This document shows, piece after piece, positions 1 to 10,529 of a stretch of DNA of 64,000 nucleotides. The stretch spans positions 166,570 through 230,569 of the forward strand of contig NW_011887298.1 in the NCBI RefSeq assembly GCF_000151315.2, in the 5' to 3' direction. Each line of letters begins with the position of its first letter. Position 1 is the first letter of the stretch. The notes beneath the pieces were generated by a model, which was not told the DNA's origin, ran no database searches, and saw only the letters and a list, made by a program, of their open reading frames with translations. Made by a program: the position numbers and the translations under genes. The stretch comes from Capsaspora owczarzaki ATCC 30864. Taxonomy: Eukaryota; Opisthokonta; Filasterea.

Positions 1-456
1 AGAGAGAGAGAGGAGCCATTTCGCGTTACAGCGTCTCCTTCTTCTCCGAGTTCGGCGACCGCATGAACGGCGACGCCTACCTCTCCTTTCTGAACGAAAA
101 GTTGAAAGACAGTCTGGCCGCTTGGGGAAACGACCCAAACATGATTTTCATGCAGGACAACGTGCCCTGTCACAAGCAGAAGGACGTGATGAAATGGTTC
201 AAAGACCAGAACCTCACCCTCTTGGAGTGGCCTGCGAACTCCCCCCGACCTCAACCCCATCGAGCATGCGTGGAACATGGTCAAGAACGCTGTGTACAAG
301 CAGCGGGAGATCACAAACCAAGACATGCTCTGGGAGCGCTTCCAAGAGGTCTACCACAAGGTCCTCACCGTCGAGGTCTGCACCTCGCTCATTTCATCCA
401 TGCCGCGCCGCATCAAAGCAGTTTTGGATGCCCAAGGTGGTTATACCAAGTATTGA
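1..456 (+). mobile_element. Tc1/mariner-family transposase, 3' part, frameshifted
   Basis: This is the C-terminal part of a Tc1/mariner DDE transposase; the 5' part lies outside the window. The open frame already runs at the left edge (FFSEFGDRMNGDAYLSF) before the first ATG at 63. It contains the second catalytic Asp in MQDNVPCH. After a run of C at about 242-247 the frame shifts by one base, and the proper continuation, SPDLNPIEHAWNMVK, is read in the next frame to a TGA at about 454-456. Counting across the shift, 34 residues separate the Asp and the Glu, giving a DD34E spacing. The copy is therefore probably dead but young, since the sequence on both sides of the shift is otherwise intact. 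It is a plain cut-and-paste DNA transposon, and its 3' flank carries repeats described separately. Confidence 0.88.
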
Positions 457-850
457 AATGGTTTGGTGGGGCTCATGCGTCCGTATGTTGTGTTGTGAAA
501 GTTGAAAAAAGAACGCCAAAAGTCCCTTTTTGGGACGATCGTGTTTTGTCCCGTTTTGCATCCTTTCTCCTTCCCCCGTCGTACCAGTCATCACCCCTCC
601 GCTCCTCTCACTCTAAACACATAGAAGGTACATATATATATGCAGTAGAGAGGGAAAAGGGAGAGTTGCGGTCGAAACGGTCGCAGGGCGGGGTGAGGAG
701 TGGAAAAAAAACGCCATGCAAAAAACTTTTTTGGGGCGATCGTACTCGTACATGTGGACCGTCGAGTGGTACTCTCCAACCGCATAAAACAACAACAAAC
801 ACCAATTCAAAAAGCGCCAAGTTGCTCAACGCAAACGGCACAAACCCCGT
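457..850. other. Non-coding 3' flank of the transposon and of the kinase gene
   Basis: No credible gene is seen. The stretch holds the transposon tail with its two direct repeats, then the sequence just downstream of the stop of the minus-strand receptor kinase. Open frames here are short and low in complexity. Confidence 0.5.
501..742. repeat. Pair of direct repeats, possible IR/DR end of the Tc1 element
   Basis: Two similar stretches lie about 200 bases apart, at about 501-542 and 701-742. Both have the form GAAAAAA, ACGCCA, a T-run, GGG(A/G)CGATCGT. Tc1-like elements of the IR/DR type carry two transposase-binding direct repeats separated by roughly this distance within each end. I infer that these are the inner and outer repeats of the right end. 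The matching left end is outside the window, so the terminal inverted repeat cannot be tested here. Confidence 0.4.
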
Positions 851-3800
851 TTACACCATTGCACCAATTTCGCGAATGGTCGTTCCATCCTGAAGCGATG
901 TCAGCACCTTGGCGAGCTGTGCAAAAGTCGGTCGGAAATCCGGTGTTGCGTTCCAGCAACTCATCATCATGTTGTAGAGCTCTGGCATGCAGGTGTCTGA
1001 CATGGGCAGCCGACCACCAGCCTCCACATGGACCAGCGTTTCACGCCCGCTCACCTGCCCGTACGGCGTTTCTCCGTAACTGCAACATTCCCCTACAACC
1101 AAGCAGCGATGTCAGTGAGAAAACAGTTTGGCACACATCATTGCGACATAGCCCTCGACTTACAGGCCGTAACACCAAACGACCACACATCGGACATGGT
1201 CGAAAACTTGCGGAAAGTCATTGTTTCCGGCGCCATCCACTGCATGTTCAACGAATAGTCAGTATCCCAAATCACAAGCAGCAACATTTGCACACACACC
1301 TTTGACCCACCTTCACAGGAAGTTTGCCACGCGTTTGCATGCGATAGTAATCGTTCTCGGTCAGTTCGCGAGAAAGCCCGAAATCGGCAATCTTGACAAC
1401 CATGCCTTGTCCCACAAGACAGTTGCGCGCGGCGAGGTCACGGTGAACAAAATGCAGCGTGCCCAGATACTCCATGCCGAGAGCAATCTGGCGAATGGCA
1501 TGCACCTGCTCGTTGTGTGTCCACGAAAGCGACTTCTTTTTGGATTTTTGCAGCAGGGTGCGCAAGTCGCCGTATTGCACAAACTCTAGCAGAACGAGAT
1601 GGGGCTCTGACTCGACCAGAGCCGCAAGTAGACGCACGACATTCGGATGCACGAATGGGGCCATCAATTTTGCCTCGCTTTCAAAGTCCTTGCGTGATTG
1701 TTCGTCCGCGTGGGATTTGAGACTCTTGACTGCGACTTGCACGACTTCAGACGAAGCTTTACGTCCAAGCAAGACTTGTGCTCGTGGGGACAGCACGCCG
1801 AAAGGCACTCGACCAAGCGCCACGTCGCCAAAGTTTCCGCTGGCAAGGTGCTTCACAATCGTCAAGCCTTCGCGAACGCGGCGAGAATTGCTGCCAGCAA
1901 CATACGGACTTTCATTGTCGTAGAATTCTTCTGTTGTGTGCGACGAGAAGTCTTCGTACACAGGTTCCGGCTGATTTTGGCTGATTGAGGCGGTGGCTGG
2001 GACGTCGTCTTCTTTGTGAGATCGAGCCGAATGGTTTTGAGGAGAGATTGCCATTTCAACCGCCTCCTGATAAATGGGACCGGCCGAGTCCTTCGATGGC
2101 ATGTCTGCACGCTGTGATCGACGACGGCGCAACATGACGAATACCAAAACAAGTATCACAATAACTGCCGCAGACGCACCAGCAGCTGCAGCGATGATAA
2201 CAACTGGAGATGAGGTTTGGGCGCCGCCGCTGAACTGTGCAATGGAGGAAGCAACAGATGCAGCCGAAGCCGATGCAGTTGACGCAGCCGAAGCCGAGAG
2301 CGCCGAGGACGCGGAAATACGAGACGCAATCGAGGCATCAGATGCCGATGCGGTTGACGCGGCAGAAGCGGAAAGCGCCGAGGTTGCGGAAACAAGAGAC
2401 GCAATCGAGGCCGCCGAGGCGGATTGCGTGGATGCGACTGAGGCGCTGGAGGCAGCCGATGCAATCGATGCGTTCGTCGCGGCTGATGCGAGGCAGTAGT
2501 CGCCCATCGCAACATAGCCTTCATAGCACAGGGTGCAGCTATTATTTGAGGTGCAGGTCAGGCAATTGATCCCACAGCACGACCCAGCACTATAGCAGGT
2601 GGCACAAGCTGTGCCGCACGCTACAGTGTACATGTCAGTCAATGGTTTTGACACGAGGATTGCAGTCACCGCTCACACTTACGTAACGGTTGGAATACAC
2701 TTCCGTATGTGCTGGGCGGAGCGACAGTGTTGCCACCAAAGGTAAAGTTGTTGGAGCTCAGAAAGGGAGCTGAGGACGACAAAGCCAAGCCATTTGGTAG
2801 CCCCTTGAACAGACCGGGGGGCAAGGTCGTGAGGGGGTTGTCATTCAAAGCCCTACAAGTTCCGCAAAGTCAGAGGCGAATCGAATACGTGCATGATGAG
2901 AGTTTTGCTTACAATCGTTGTAACGTAGGCAGGTCTGTGAAAGCGTTTGCGGGAATGCTGTTGAGCTGGACGGAGTGCAGATATCTTCCAAAACGGTCGC
3001 AAATGAGTGAGCCATATATGTGCGTGAGTCTTCTTGTCGTAGCGTACTTACAGGGCAGTCAGCGCGGTCAGGCCTCTGAACGCGTTTGCAGAAATGCTGG
3101 TGATCCGGGTGTGACTCAATTCCCTGAAGACCGTGTTACACAAAAAAAAGATGAGTCTTGTGAGCGTAAGGATTTTCTCGACTTTTCTTGCTTACAATTG
3201 GGTCAGAGCGGTCAGGCCTGCGAATGCGTCTGCGGGAATGCTGGTGATCTGGTTCTCGAACAAAAATCTACAAATCGAGCCGCAAAATGAGTGAGCCGGC
3301 CAGGCTTGATTCTCATTGATGTCACTAGCTTACAATTGGGTCAGAGCGGTCAGGCCTGCGAATGCGTCTGCGGGAATGCTGGTGATCTGGTTCTCGAACA
3401 AATATCTACAAATCGAGCGGCAAATGAGTGAGCCGGCCATGCTTGATTCTCATGCTGTTACATGCTTACAATTGCGTCAGCGCACTCAGGCCTGTGAATG
3501 TGTTCGCAGAAAGGCTGGTGATCATGTTGTAGGATAAATCCCTGCAGGTAGTGTCACAAACGAGTGAGCCGGCCATGCTTGATTCTCATGCTGTTACATG
3601 CTTACAAACGCGTCAGCGCGCTCAGGCCTGTGAATGTGTTTGCAGAAAGGCTGGTGATCATGTTGTAGGATAAATCCCTGCAGGTAGTGTCACAAACGAG
3701 TGAGCCGGCCATGCTTGATTATCATGCTGTTACAAGCTTACAATTGCGTCAGCGCACTCAGGTCTGTGAATGCGTTTGCAGAAAGGCTGGTGATCTGGGC

Positions 3801-5717
3801 GCTGCTCAGATATCTACAGATATAATTCAGTACAGATCGAGCGAACTGCTTTCGGTTGTTTCTTGCTTACAAGAACTGCAGCGCAGTCAGGCCTGCGAAT
3901 GCATTTGCGGGAATGTTGAGAATCTGGTTACTTTGCAGCGTTCTACAGATGAAGTCGAATGTGAGTGAGCTGGCAGCGCGTGATTCTGTGTGTGTGTTTG
4001 CCTACAAGAAGGTCAGCGCAGTGAGGCCTGTAAATGCGTTTGCGGAAATGACGGTGATAAGGCAGGCGAACAGACTTCTATAATACATATGCTGACAAGT
4101 GAGTCATTTTTGAGTGATTCTTCTTGGCTTTGCTTGCATACAAGTAATTCAGCGCAGAAAGGCCCGTGAATGCGTTTGCGGGAATGGCGGTGAACAGGTT
4201 GCCTCCCAGATTCCTACAAATAAGTCGCCGACGAATGAGAGGTTTGTGTGACTCTTCCTGTCTTTGCATGCGTACAAGGTATTCAGTGCAGTCAGGCCGG
4301 TAAAAGCGGAGGAGGGGATGGTGCGGATTATGTTGTTGGTCAGGCTCCTATAGATAGAGTCGCAAAACAGTGAGCCGTTTGTCCGTGCCTCCTCAAGTTC
4401 GTTTACTCGCTTACAATTGTGTCAGTGCAGTAAGGTCTGAGAATGCCGTTGCGTGAATGCTGGTGATTTGGTTCATGGAAAGATCCCTACAATTACAGTC
4501 GCAGCAACGAGTCAGCCGTTTGGGTGATTCTTCATGTCATTGCGTTGCTTACAGCTGTGCCAGCGCAGTCAGGCCTGTGAATGCGTTTGCAGAAAGGCTG
4601 GTGAGCTTGTTGTACGATAGATCCCTAAAGGCAATGTTGCACATGAGTGAATCGTTCACGCTGGAATCTCATGCGGTTGCTTTCTTACGTTTGTGTTACG
4701 CTGCTCAGACCTGTGAATGTGGTTGCAACAATGTTGGTGATATTGTTGTTTTGCAGAGTCCTGCAGACAGTGTCCCAAACAAGTGAGCAGTTCGTGGTCG
4801 AATTATCATGCCTTGTGTTTACTTACACTTGCGTCAGCGAAGTCAGGCCTGTGAATGCGTTTGTAGCAAGGCTGGTGATGTGGTTGAATTGCAGAGACCT
4901 ATAGAGAGCGTTGCAAACCAAGCGAGCCGCTTGCGCAGTCTTCAGCATGACTATCGCGTGACTGAGGATGAGTTAGGAATATCTTTGCTTGCTTACAATG
5001 TCGTCAGCATGGTCAGGCCTGTGAACAACGAGCCAGGAATCTTGGTGATCCGGTTGTTGCTTAAATCTCTACAGATCGCGCCGTTAACGACTGAGCTGCT
5101 CTGTGTGATTCTGCATGCCTTCGTTTACTTACAAGTAGTTTAGCGCAGTCAGGCCTGTGAATGCTTGGGCAGAAATGCCGGTGAGCTGGTTGTAGGATAG
5201 TTCTCTGCATATAGAGTTCCAAACGAGTGAGCCATATGTTGTCTTTCGTGTCTCTGATTGCTTACAAGTACTGCAGCGCAGTCAGGCCTGCGAATGCATT
5301 TGCGGGAATGCTGATGAGCTGCATTTGGTTCAGTCTCCTTCAAACAGAGTCACACACGAGTGAGGCTGTTATCTGCAATTATTTCTATCTTTGCTGTCTT
5401 ACAAAGTAATCAGAGCAGGAAGGCCTGTGAAGGCGTTTGCTGGAATGCTGAACCGGTTTCCGGTGAACGACCTATCGACCGTGTGCCAATCATGAGAGCA
5501 ACGCTTCATGTCAAGGTCAACTCAGTTGCAACACATACAAGTAAGTTGTTGAGACTGGAATTCCGGTTGGAACAGCTGCAAGAGATTGGTAGCTGCAATC
5601 GACAGTAGTTCCTGTGCAACCGCACACCGCACAAGCATTGACTGCTTGTGCCAACTGGACGTGATTTATCCCGCAAAGCAACAGAAGCAGACCAAAGACA
5701 AATCTTTTACGAGTCAT
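851..5717 (-). CDS. LRR receptor tyrosine kinase, single-pass membrane protein
   Basis: Rebuilt from 24 exons to 1113 residues. Exon 1 (5539-5717) gives a signal peptide (MTRKRFVFGLLLLLCG) and a Cys-rich LRR cap. Nineteen LRR exons follow, eighteen of 72 nt and one of 69 nt. Exon 2683-2852 ends the LRR domain. Exon 1311-2620 encodes a Cys-rich module, an Ala/Ser stalk, a membrane helix (AAVIVILVLVFVML then RRRR), a juxtamembrane tail with Tyr motifs, and most of the kinase. The kinase shows GNFGDV, VAVKSLK, HRDLAARN, DFGLSRE and the activation-loop pair YYR. Exons 1164-1239 and 851-1092 supply WMAPE and DVWSFGVTAW. Junctions agree in phase throughout. HRDLAARN and the W after VK mark a true tyrosine kinase. 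The first Gly of the ATP loop is replaced (ASGNFG). The ligand is unknown. Animals and filastereans have many such receptors; this one has no assignable orthologue. Confidence 0.9.
2913..5471 (-). repeat. Tandem array of 19 LRR exon-intron units, period about 136 bp
   Basis: Exons, low to high coordinate, begin near 2913, 3052, 3196, 3334, 3470, 3606, 3742, 3871, 4006, 4142, 4276, 4415, 4553, 4689, 4827, 4997, 5133, 5266 and 5403. All are 72 nt except the last, which is 69 nt. Each encodes one 24-residue leucine-rich repeat of the type ITSIPANAFAGLTAL, and each is flanked by phase-2 introns. Neighbouring units at 3196 and 3334, and at 3470 and 3606, are nearly identical in intron as well as exon, showing recent tandem duplication of the whole unit. 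The DNA periodicity is thus coding, not satellite. Confidence 0.93.
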
Positions 5718-6755: not shown

Positions 6756-8025
6756 TTATGGCAGAGTTGCGGGCCGCTGGGGCGGAGAGGAAGGTTTGGC
6801 TGGATGCTAAGCGCCTGAAATCACGAGGCGAAACATCGCAATGGGAGCAGCACTCAAGCGGCTTTTTCCAGGTCCTGTCTTCCTGCCGTCCGGAGGCACG
6901 TACACGCCATGCCAATGGACTGGTGATCGAGTGGCAAAGCAGTTGACGCTCTGTGGGTTCAGCTGGCTGCGGGCGCGCTACTGTGGGAGACTGGGGTCGG
7001 AATCACTCCCACAACGGCGATTGGATTCGCCAGAACTCGTTCGAGAAAGTTTGTGAGCTGGCGGCGACAGTCCACGCAACGGCAGAGCCCCGATTTTCTC
7101 AAACAGTGAACTCGAGTACATTGTGTGGATGCTCGAGTGGTGTGCTCGCGCCAATCAATGCACGTGCAAGAAAAGGGCTGGCGAAACGATTGTCGCGATG
7201 GCCCTCCACTCTCGAGTCTCCGGGGACCCGCACAGGCAGTTTGCGGGTAGTCTACCGTTACAGGCGTCTTCACAATCTGCGCAGATGGTTCGACACCCAC
7301 ACCTCCCACTCTTATCTTTTCGACGAACGCACAGAAGAACTCGGCCACTCAAAGTCTGCCTCCAAATGTCGCCAATTACCGGGTTTCGGCTAGCAGCTAC
7401 ATTACCCAAGAGCTGTAACCATCGACAAACGACGAGAGGAGCTTCGAGCTCAGGATGCAACGCATGATGCGCAGGCAGAACTGGCCAAACTGGACGACGA
7501 TCGTATCGCCAAGGACACGGAGCTTCAGTCACTTGCAAAACCGAAGCGTAGACGGCTGCCGAGGCAACCACGACCCGTCTCTCCATCAATTACAGCAGCT
7601 ACGAAGCCATCAACCGCGCGCAGAGCGCGGCGGGCTGCGGCGGAAGACGACAGCTCATCGGACTCGGACTCCCAGCAAGCGTCGAACATTGGGCACGAGG
7701 CGGACGAGAGTGGTTATGACTCTGACGACAATGAGCGAGTGTTACAAGTCACACGCACTGACTCCCAGAGTGACGGGGAGGTTCACTTTGCGCTGAAGGC
7801 GCTGGAGACGCGAGAAATCGCGGATAACATCCGCCCTCGCCCTTTCCGCGCAGCCCGCCGGCTTGGAATTGACGCCTTGGGCGACATTAACAACCCTGTG
7901 AACAAAAGGGTACGCCTCGACACCGAAGCCCACGCTGTGGAGCCGCCGCCGATGACCGTCAACTTGACCGAGCTGCTAAGGCACCAGATGTTTGTTCCTG
8001 CCTCTTCTTGCCCTAATCCTTGTTA
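6756..8025 (+). pseudogene. Interrupted open frame of unknown identity
   Basis: One reading frame stays open over most of this stretch but is broken twice, near 6944 and 7391, giving three segments. The last runs to a stop near 8025. Its C-terminal third looks protein-like: a charged, probably helical segment (TIDKRREELRAQ, then AELAKLDDDR), a basic patch (KPKRRRLPRQPR), an acidic Ser-Asp tract (DDSSSDSDSQQ) and a final segment ending near LTELLRHQMF. Either the stops lie in introns I could not define, or this is a decayed gene or a relic of a DNA transposon. I recognise no family. The upstream third is the least secure. Confidence 0.3.
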
Positions 8026-8299
8026 ATTCAATACAATAGCATACTAGAAACACATTCAACATGAAAGAAGACGGCTGGAGTAATTTCCCTCGAAGTTGTC
8101 TCGGCCTCTCAGTCTTCATGTGTTGAATCTCGCGTGCGTTTCGGGTACCCCCTCTCCCCACTCCTGGGGCTCTGCGCCCTGTGATTGAGAGATGACCCTG
8201 TGCTTGTGCTTCGACTAAGAGAATGACGATGGAGAACGGGATTGGTGGGCGCGTGAACGAGAAGCGTTGCGAGCAAACTGACTGAGAGCAAACGTTGTA

Positions 8300-10529
8300 A
8301 TGCAGGCAGTTATGGATGATATGAACGAGCTCCAGCGCGAGCTGTATGATATAGTCAAGAATGCGACTGAAGAGCTCGAGTAAGAGAAACCCCCGACGTT
8401 ATTGGAACAATGTGAGTGTGCGCATGCTGACGAATCGGAACCAGTCTGAGTGAGGAACGGATTGACGTTGCTGCAGCTCAAGCGATAGCTGAAGCACTCA
8501 AGGTGAACACGACGCTGACTTGGCTCAAGTATGTCACTTCACTTTGTACTGATGCATTTGGAGTCAGTGGGTGGCGTCAACAGCGGGTAGGCATGGTACT
8601 CACTGAAGGAAGGGATACGAACAGGTTGGAAAAAAATCAGATTGGAGATCTTGGAGTGCAAGCCATTGCTGAGGCGCTCAAGGTGAACACGACGCTGACT
8701 TATCTCGAGTAAGGAAACTGGCTTTGATTGGTGCGTGTTAGTGAGTGATTGCAGCAACAAGTATTCAGAGTGCTCACCGACGGAGGGGATGCGGGCAGTC
8801 TGGATAGCAATCAGATCGGCGATGCCGGAGCGAAGGTGCTTGCTGAGGCACTCAAGGGGCACACGACGCTGACTGGCCTCGGGTAAGGCATCTCACATTG
8901 AGTCTTGCATGCGAGTGGGTGATTTCAGTAGAGTGCAGCAAGGGCGCTCACTGGTGGAGGGAATGGACAGCTTGAACACCAGTCAGATCGGCGAAGTTGG
9001 AGCTCAGGCCATTTGTGAGGCACTCAAGGTGAACTCGACGCTGACTATGCTCGAGTAAGGCATCTCAAATTTACTGATGCATTTGCGTTGGTGATTTCAA
9101 CATAGCTTAGAATGCTCACCCATGGAGGGGATGTGGACAGTCTGGACGCCAATCAAATCGGCGATGCTGGAGCGCAGGCGATTGCTCAGGCACTCAAAGT
9201 GAATACGACGCTGACTTGGCTCAAGTTAGTCTCCCACTTTGACTGGTGTATGTGAGTGGGTGAATACAGCAGAGAGCATTTAGAGTGCTCACCGATGGAG
9301 GGGATGTGGGCAGTCTGGACGGCAATCAGATTGGCGACGCTGGAGCGCAGGCGATTGCTCAGGCACTCAAGGTGAACTCAACATTGAAGAAGCTCTTGTA
9401 AGTTGCTGTGATTTCGGAGCGTATTCTGAACACCGACTGATTGCGGGGATGGACAGTCTGGACGCCAATCAGATTGGCGATGCTGGAGCGCAGGCCATTG
9501 GCGAGGCACTCAAAGTGAACAAAAGGCTGATCGACCTCAGGTAAGGCACCTCGCTTTCATTGATGCTTGTTAGTGAGCAATTCAGCAGATAGCATTCAGA
9601 GTGCTCACCGATGATGGAAGGGATGTGGACAGGCTGAGTGAGAATCACATTGGCGACGCTGGAGCGAACACGATTGCTGCAGCACTCAAAGTTAACACGA
9701 CGTTGACTTGGCTCAAGTAAGTCTCCCACTTTGACTGGTGTATGTGAGTGGGTGAATACAGCAGAGAGCATTCAGAGTGCTCACCGATGGAGGCGATGGA
9801 CAGTCTGAGTGAGAATCAGATTGGCAATGTTGGAGCGGAGGCGATTGCCGAGGCACTCAAAGTGAACACGACGCTGGCTGTGCTAGGGTAAGGCACCTCA
9901 CGTCGAGTCTTGCATGTGAGTGGGTGATTTCAGCAGAGTGCAGCAAGGGCGCTCACTGGTGAATCGAGTGGACAGTTTGCACACAAATGAGATTGGCGAT
10001 GACGGAGCTTGCGAGCTTGCTGATGCACTCGAAGTGAACACGACGATGACTAAGCTCCAGTAAGCCGCTGTGCGCTTTGCTGGTATCGAAAACTGAGCCA
10101 GTCAGGTATACTTGCTATGTTGTCCATCCCCACTCATGCATTGCGACAGTCTAGACCGTAATTGCATGGACTACGGACGTTCCGCGCTTCTAGATGTACG
10201 CGAAGACAACTGCAGGCTGGAGCTTACGTAGGTGCTGTTTTGTGAACTTGAACATGAGAGCCTCTTCCCACGCAAGTGTTCCTCGAACCAATGGATGGCC
10301 GTGCTGACTGCCCACTAATTGTAATTGTTCGCTGCACAGCTTCGACGACCAGATAGGCTGTCTTGCATTCATCTGGTTGCCACGAAAGGCAACTGCTGAA
10401 GACGTCCAGAGCGTGTTTCTACTGCTGACCAGCGGACTGCAGCTGGAGGATCAATCCGCATGTCTACCGGCACTTCCAGCTGAGACTCACCACAAAAACT
10501 GCAAGTTGTTTCAAATAATTCTTTCTTAA
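8300..10529 (+). CDS. Ribonuclease-inhibitor-type LRR (RNI) protein
   Basis: Rebuilt from 13 exons to 395 residues. Exon 1 (8300-8379) encodes a short acidic leader (MQAVMDDMNELQRELY). Exons 2 to 11 are each exactly 84 nt and encode one 28-residue repeat of the form NQIGDAGAQAIAEALKVNTT, diagnostic of RNI/NLRC-type LRRs. Exon 12 (10150-10227, 78 nt) is a diverged repeat, and exon 13 (10340-10529) gives the C-terminus. All introns are phase 2 and the total is in frame. There is no signal peptide or membrane helix, so a cytosolic curved scaffold for protein binding is likely. No NACHT or other effector domain is visible, although more 5' exons cannot be excluded. The partner is unknown. The last two exons are less certain than the repeat core. 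Confidence 0.78.
8445..10059 (+). repeat. Tandem array of ten 84-nt RNI-LRR exons with duplicated introns
   Basis: Exons start near 8445, 8625, 8799, 8971, 9141, 9314, 9457, 9633, 9804 and 9976. Introns are duplicated too. Those after the 9141 and 9633 exons are almost identical (CTCCCACTTTGACTGGTG), and those after the 8799 and 9804 exons share GAGTCTTGCATG. Upstream of several acceptors the phrase AGAGTGCTCACCGATGGA recurs. This shows copying of exon-plus-intron units. Confidence 0.9.

What the first reader, a model, noticed from the sequence alone, without database searches (positions are those of the whole stretch)
2913..5471. Receptor kinase ectodomain built by tandem duplication of exon-plus-intron units
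Nineteen consecutive exons each encode exactly one LRR. They repeat every 136 bp or so with phase-2 introns throughout. Adjacent units (3196/3334 and 3470/3606) match in intron as well as exon, so copying is recent and unit-wise. Every exon is symmetric, so units can be lost, gained or skipped in frame, giving an easy route to a variable ligand-binding surface.
Basis: partly seen in the sequence, partly recalled or inferred. Interest (0 to 1): 0.75.

Follow-up and report, generated by a model that had tools for sequence, protein, structure and literature searches.

The report
Receptor assembled from one-repeat exon units
A cell-surface receptor gene of the single-celled animal relative Capsaspora is built from 19 exons of nearly one length, one protein repeat each, copied together with their introns; the same plan runs through a family of sister genes and is already known from algae, ciliates and vertebrates.

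Summary
On the minus strand, 19 exons (18 of 72 nt, one of 69 nt) between phase-2 introns each encode one LRR of a 24-exon, 1,113-aa receptor tyrosine kinase of Capsaspora owczarzaki (window 5717..851). Unit introns are related beyond splice signals, but only exons 14-18 carry clearly recent copying. The gene is ordinary for its genome: in the sister loci examined I found 235 such units in 19 arrays (2-45 per array); 216 of 219 LRR-like stretches sat in 72-nt exons. Two near-identical paralogous arrays differ by about ten units (inside a 12-unit tandem repeat) and by five units, so whole-unit gain or loss is well supported, barring assembly error. Concave-face codons have pN/pS about 1.1 against 0.39 elsewhere: tolerant or diversifying, not proven positive selection. 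Three annotated isoforms omit units, but each join falls where 23-49 identical nt are shared, so none proves exon skipping. Strain variation, ligands and RNA could not be tested. The same architecture is in print for brown-algal ROCO genes (72 bp, phase 2), Tetrahymena LRR genes (90 bp, phase 2) and gonadotropin receptors: a new member of a known kind.

The parts
5539..5717 (-). Exon 1: start, signal-peptide-like stretch, Cys-rich LRR N-cap; ends in phase 2
   Evidence: open frame and GT donor; signal peptide and N-cap by eye only
5403..5471 (-). Exon 2: first LRR unit exon, 69 nt
2913..5337 (-). Exons 3-20: eighteen 72-nt LRR unit exons separated by 17 phase-2 introns (57-98 nt)
   Evidence: Pfam LRR_8 1e-127
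3196..3813 (-). Exons 14-18 with introns 14-17: the recently duplicated block; intron 16 looks like a chimera (5' part like intron 15, 3' part like intron 17)
   Evidence: identities; intron letters; TRF
2683..2852 (-). Exon 21: last LRR and C-cap, 170 nt, phase 2 in, phase 1 out
1311..2620 (-). Exon 22: Cys-rich module, Ala/Ser-rich stalk, transmembrane stretch (about 2205-2133, by eye), start of the kinase domain
   Evidence: PF07714 E 2.1e-86 over residues 825-1096
1164..1239 (-). Exon 23: kinase domain
851..1092 (-). Exon 24: end of kinase domain and stop
4899..4996 (-). Intron 5 (98 nt, the longest): the annotated isoform P0061 starts at an ATG inside it (about 4948), as if this intron were retained

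Best explanation
It is a Capsaspora owczarzaki LRR receptor tyrosine kinase whose ectodomain grew from a founder exon (one 24-residue LRR in 72 nt, phase-2 intron on each side). Unequal crossing-over or slippage between related introns and exons adds or removes whole units; because every unit is 3n long with phase 2 at both ends, each change keeps the frame and adds or removes one turn of the LRR solenoid. In this gene most units are old and one block (exons 14-18) is recent; in some sister genes the process has been active lately. Shown: gene model, phases, relatedness of introns, unit-number differences between near-identical paralogues. Inferred: crossing-over as the mechanism, ligand binding by the concave face, and that unit number changes ligand choice. 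Not shown: unit variation between strains, or skipping of units in transcripts.
For: Gene model in frame over 24 exons with GT-AG borders. The annotated protein P0061 agrees with the model for exons 6, 7 and part of 8, and from inside exon 14 to the stop (759 residues exact), so those introns are removed in that annotation. Unit introns: within-gene mean 65.9, between-gene 62.6, shuffled 53.0; against this gene's three non-unit introns 21-23, 53.1; intron middles alone 59.2 within and 55.6 between against 48.1 shuffled (sampled family pairs). A 14-mer of these introns occurs 33 times in the genome, reversed control 0; 15 of the 33 lie in or within 30 bp of arrays mapped, the others were not examined. 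Family: 235 units in 19 arrays; 216 of 219 LRR-like 23-mers in such exons. Paralogues C18:156725-162801 (45 units) and C16:3699-9143 (39 found): 20 consecutive aligned units are 98.0% alike in exons and 97.1% in introns, yet in a simple unit alignment C18 has ten units without a partner near its 5' end, inside a 12-unit tandem repeat (offset 1,629 bp), and C16 has five that C18 lacks. Exon-to-downstream-intron Mantel r 0.34, P 0.0135.
Against: Exon and UPSTREAM intron divergence do not correlate over the whole gene (r 0.05, P 0.37), although the upstream intron is the one that matches best in the recent pairs. E17/E18 differ at 1 of 72 sites while introns I16/I17 are 88% alike, so conversion or selection on exons may contribute. 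Another close paralogue pair (C16:13k and C16:44k) has the same unit number, 8 and 8. Array differences could in part be assembly errors in repeats. A tree of 233 unit exons has 123 gene-label changes against a shuffled mean of 168 (100 shuffles, minimum 158): clustering by gene is real but far from complete. The LRR profile used for the family scan was built from such units, so LRRs of another make would be missed.
Confidence: 0.85

Rival explanations
1. Fast-evolving receptor repertoire: the arrays are kept modular because unit turnover (and perhaps unit skipping in RNA) is selected for, giving a changing ligand-binding surface, as proposed for brown-algal ROCO genes.
For: pN/pS at six concave-face codons 1.13 (bootstrap 0.76-1.79, 68 recent pairs) against 0.39 (0.29-0.52) at the other 17 codons; 2-45 units per array; 11 of 39 family kinase places within 50 kb of a contig end, against at most 10.6% expected, P 0.002 (a 40th place was dropped for lack of a contig length); PMC3870316 (passages) reports stage-regulated exon skipping enriched in protein kinase genes of this species.
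Against: Concave pN/pS is not significantly above 1, and the pairs are not independent. Duplicated exons here are almost identical in protein (E15/E16, E17/E18), so recent copying added little diversity. The three annotated isoforms that omit units all join at shared stretches (30 nt in P0061, 49 in P0062, 23 in P0001). Contig ends may be assembly breaks. Ligands unknown.
Confidence: 0.27
2. Inert architecture: exon-per-LRR is an inherited layout; unit changes are neutral by-products of repetitive DNA and no variable ligand surface is selected.
For: 16 of 18 adjacent exon pairs here are at background likeness (62-76%); one close paralogue pair kept 8 and 8 units; concave pN/pS near 1 is also what lack of constraint gives.
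Against: Constraint on the other codons (pN/pS 0.39) and an apparently intact kinase domain (HRDLAARN and DFG read) argue for kept function; one pair of near-identical paralogues differs in two blocks of units.
Confidence: 0.5
3. Shared intron text reflects splice-site and branch-site constraint in a genome with short introns, not common descent of units.
For: CTCAC starts at a median 27 nt from the 3' end in the 144 of 208 introns that have it, a branch-site-like position; the 3' part is the more alike part (61.5%).
Against: Middles without the last 30 nt still exceed shuffles; the three non-unit introns of the same gene are at chance against unit introns (53.1%, a small control); I14/I15 97% and I16/I17 88% over full length.
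Confidence: 0.1

Closest known systems
Brown-algal ROCO genes (PMC11378527, abstract and passages seen; Zambounis 2012 is not held and is known to me here through that paper)
   Same: Each LRR in its own 72-bp exon in phase 2, tandem arrays, variable sites on the concave face, alternative splicing of units proposed to diversify receptors
   Different: LRR-ROC-COR GTPases of brown algae; here a transmembrane-type tyrosine kinase with no ROC or COR match in Pfam. The paper reports positively selected sites; here pN/pS is about 1.1 and not significantly above 1
[quoted passage not shown]
   Same: One exon length, extreme phase-2 bias, 1-51 unit exons per gene in T. thermophila, unequal crossing-over proposed, youngest genes pericentromeric and subtelomeric
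   Different: 90-bp exons and thousands of genes; here 72 nt and 235 units mapped; a link with a retroelement was not tested here
Gonadotropin (LH) receptor LRR exons (as stated in PMC11378527)
   Same: In-phase (phase 2) exons of about one LRR each
   Different: G-protein-coupled receptor with a fixed set of LRR exons (recalled)
Sister genes in the C. owczarzaki genome (the 39 other best places)
   Same: 60-84% identical to this gene over the matched kinase-part query; 18 of the 29 others held with 1.5-kb flanks show the same unit exons
   Different: Number of units and, in some (C5, C19, C9:1132k), more than one LRR block

Membership tests
C. owczarzaki LRR receptor tyrosine kinase family | LRR ectodomain | tested here: met
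   Pfam LRR_8 E 1e-127, 12 stretches
C. owczarzaki LRR receptor tyrosine kinase family | Tyrosine-kinase catalytic domain | tested here: met
   PF07714 E 2.1e-86; HRDLAARN, DFG and VAVK read in the translation (their meaning is recalled)
C. owczarzaki LRR receptor tyrosine kinase family | Signal peptide and single transmembrane helix | tested here: inconclusive
   hydrophobic stretches visible; no predictor run
72-bp phase-2 LRR exon arrays (layout described for brown algae) | Tandem exons of exactly 72 nt, phase 2, one LRR each | tested here: met
   18 of 19 unit exons are 72 nt, all between phase-2 introns
Brown-algal ROCO family | ROC-COR domain pair | tested here: not met
   no such family among the 10 Pfam matches
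Brown-algal ROCO family | Positive selection on concave LRR sites | tested here: inconclusive
   pN/pS 1.13, interval 0.76-1.79, by simple counting over 68 pairs
Tetrahymena 90-bp LRR genes | 90-bp exons | tested here: not met
   72 nt, one 69 nt
Exon-shuffled, unit-variable receptor repertoire | Unit number differs between individuals or strains | not testable with these tools
   one genome only; differences between paralogues shown instead
Exon-shuffled, unit-variable receptor repertoire | In-frame skipping of units in transcripts | tested here: inconclusive
   three annotated isoforms omit units, each join at an identical stretch of 23-49 nt; no reads examined

The most novel reading that the evidence does not exclude
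Capsaspora keeps its LRR receptor tyrosine kinases as a recombination-fed receptor repertoire: hundreds of exchangeable 72-nt LRR units, in arrays of up to 45, turn over by whole units within and between genes, partly near chromosome ends, and stage-regulated skipping of units adds a second layer of variety, so that a one-celled relative of animals diversifies recognition (of prey, host or its own aggregates) in the way proposed for brown-algal candidate immune receptors.
Probability: 0.22. Interest if true: 0.75.

Novelty: new member of a known kind. Interest (0 to 1): 0.4.

Why it matters
It puts a case of unit-wise LRR exon turnover into receptor tyrosine kinases of a close unicellular relative of animals, where kinase-gene exon skipping is already reported (PMC3870316), and it supplies a natural experiment: two near-identical arrays that differ in two blocks of units. 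If unit number proves to vary between isolates or life stages, this would be a further lineage, besides brown algae and Tetrahymena, that took the same route to variable receptors.

Tried and rejected
Unit numbers in strains: I had only this genome, so paralogues were used instead. Annotated isoforms as proof of exon skipping: rejected. In P0061 (this gene) the E8-to-E14 join lies inside a shared 30-nt stretch without any GT. Positional matching of this gene's units to those of the C19 paralogue: identities only 60-78%, no useful register. blastn of C16 against C18 with an identity filter gave one short hit and was redone without it. The donor pattern was written one codon out of register (all but one of its 86 rows carry 2 mismatches); its rows were read against by hand. 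Separate exon and intron trees for the 19 units were not built, because about 70 nt each gives little signal; distance matrices and a Mantel test were used, and a FastTree of 233 family units. No structure was predicted. Scanner limits: 11 of 30 kinase loci with 1.5-kb flanks showed no unit (other ectodomain, or units farther off); the exon profile was made from units of this gene and of P0062; units that are not 72 nt or are degenerate are missed, such as exon 2 here and probably one unit in C16 (196-nt gap). The C7 contig is 1,533,084 bases here but the record behind P0061 lists 1,544,022; the cause is unknown, and the gene was matched by sequence.
Full report
What is there. The window is C. 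owczarzaki DNA: the 14 best protein relatives of the kinase part, P0001-P0014, are C. owczarzaki ATCC 30864 records. The gene runs on the minus strand from 5717 to 851 in 24 exons with GT-AG introns and codes for 1,113 residues. Exon 1 holds a signal-peptide-like start and LRR N-cap; exons 2-20 are the 19 unit exons of the finding (one 69 nt, eighteen 72 nt); exon 21 the last LRR and cap; exons 22-24 a Cys-rich module, an Ala/Ser stalk, a transmembrane stretch and a tyrosine-kinase domain (Pfam; signal peptide, caps and transmembrane stretch by eye). Introns 1-20 are all phase 2, so any unit exon can be lost or gained in frame.

Are exon and intron copied together? Over 171 unit pairs the mean identity is 67.4% for exons and 62.3% for downstream introns; shuffled introns with splice ends kept give 52.8%. 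Exon and downstream-intron distances correlate (Mantel r 0.34, P 0.0135); exon and upstream-intron distances do not (r 0.05, P 0.37). Removing the first 6 and last 30 nt leaves 55.5% against 47.7% shuffled, and 54.9% against 48.1% without the recent block. Three non-unit introns of the same gene (21-23) are at chance against the unit introns (53.1%), a small control. An intron 14-mer taken from these units occurs 33 times in the genome, its reversed control never; 15 of the 33 fall in or within 30 bp of arrays mapped, and the rest were not examined.

How recent? Only exons 14-18: I14/I15 97%, E15/E16 94%, I15/I16 86%, I16/I17 88%, E17/E18 99%; 16 of 18 adjacent exon pairs are 62-76% alike and identity does not fall with distance. 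Intron 16 resembles intron 15 in its first part and intron 17 in its last part (letters), as expected if a breakpoint lay in the intron; that is an inference from the letters.

The family. The 40 best-scoring places for the kinase-part query in this genome, this gene included, are 60-100% identical over their matched stretches (further rows are weaker or partial). Of 30 loci held with 1.5-kb flanks, 19 show unit exons and 11 do not. With 13 further stretches there are 235 unit exons in 19 arrays of 2 to 45 units; of 219 LRR-like 23-mers 216 lie in 72-nt AG..GT exons (the profile was made from such units). Of 88 exact genome copies of an LRR exon-tail pattern, 84 stand at a GTAA or GTGA donor; with up to two mismatches the pattern occurs 445 times, reversed control 0. 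The nearest unit is in the same gene for 65 of 233 units, against 22.8 in shuffles, maximum 44: gene-wise copying is real, but 168 of 233 units have their nearest relative in another gene, which close paralogue pairs (C18/C16 and the two C16 genes) partly explain.

Gain and loss. The arrays at C18:156725-162801 and C16:3699-9143 are recent paralogues: 20 consecutive aligned units are 98.0% alike in exons and 97.1% in introns. Yet C18 holds a 12-unit tandem repeat, offset 1,629 bp, with seven unit pairs 12 apart identical (3/15, 4/16, 5/17, 6/18, 8/20, 9/21, 10/22). In a simple unit alignment ten C18 units near the 5' end have no partner in C16, five C16 units have none in C18, and one more C18 unit faces the 196-nt gap in C16 where the scanner probably missed a unit. 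Against this, C16:13k and C16:44k kept 8 and 8 units. Assembly error in repeats cannot be excluded.

Selection. In 68 recent unit pairs, pN/pS is 1.13 (bootstrap 0.76-1.79) at the six concave-face codons and 0.39 (0.29-0.52) at the other 17; in 164 older pairs 0.94 and 0.39; in the 43 closest pairs 1.24 (0.71-2.90) and 0.39. Pairs overlap in units and are not independent. Which codons face the concave side is taken from the LRR consensus (recalled), not from a model. This is what a free or diversifying binding face looks like; it does not prove positive selection.

Splicing. The annotated form of this gene, P0061 (831 aa, 'variant 2'), begins at an ATG in intron 5 and passes from exon 8 to exon 14 inside a shared 30-nt stretch with no GT in it: most likely an artefact of template switching or assembly, less likely a DNA-level deletion. 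P0062 leaves out a 9-unit block of the C5 gene, and P0001 leaves out unit 5 of the C9:212k gene. Both proteins fit exon-precise skipping, but 49 nt before the border are identical in the two N-cap exons of the C5 gene, and units 5 and 6 of the C9 gene share their first 23 nt, so the same kind of artefact could explain them. These are annotations; I saw no reads. PMC3870316 (passages) reports differential exon skipping in this species enriched in protein kinase genes, about 60% of it keeping the frame; its gene list was not available here.

What is known. PMC11378527 (abstract and passages) describes brown-algal ROCO genes in which each LRR exon is 72 bp in phase 2, with positively selected concave-face sites and alternative splicing, and mentions gonadotropin receptors with phase-2 LRR exons. 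[quoted passage not shown] Searches for a print account in Capsaspora (listings and abstract starts only, 12 of 79 papers listed) gave none that I recognised; the library lacks most subscription papers, and I did not read the 2012 survey of premetazoan tyrosine kinases cited in PMC3870316. So the kind is known; whether its use in Capsaspora receptor kinases has been described I cannot say beyond those searches.

Verdict. Observation confirmed; interpretation right about origin, too strong about recency, unproven about function. The most useful new facts are the extent of the layout among sister genes and the paralogue pair that differs by whole blocks of units.

Noticed in passing
window 8445-10059 (+): A second array: ten 84-nt exons, each one 28-residue ribonuclease-inhibitor-type LRR (type recalled; LDxNQIGDAGAxAIAEALKVNTTLTxL), again in phase 2, within tandem repeats of period 172-176. 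Two LRR classes in one window use the exon-per-repeat plan.
   Followed up: partly
window 4948 and exons 8/14 (-): The public annotation of this gene (P0061) misses the first five exons, reads through the end of intron 5 and drops exons 9-13 at an intra-exon join; that public model looks wrong.
   Followed up: yes
contig ends of C16, C10, C18, C7, C19, C6, C9, C4: 11 of 39 family kinase places lie within 50 kb of a contig end (8 within 20 kb), more than expected; subtelomeric clustering or assembly breaks.
   Followed up: partly
C16:47539-49938 (+): An 18-unit array with a two-unit higher-order period (mean exon identity 67-78% at even lags, 62-65% at odd lags).
   Followed up: no
window 1-460 (+) and 6760-8030: Transposase-like reading at the window start, and another mobile-element-like stretch; by eye only, nothing searched.
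   Followed up: no
window 2269-2411 (-): 75-nt tandem repeat in the Ala/Ser-rich stalk, 1.9 copies, 86% matches.
   Followed up: no
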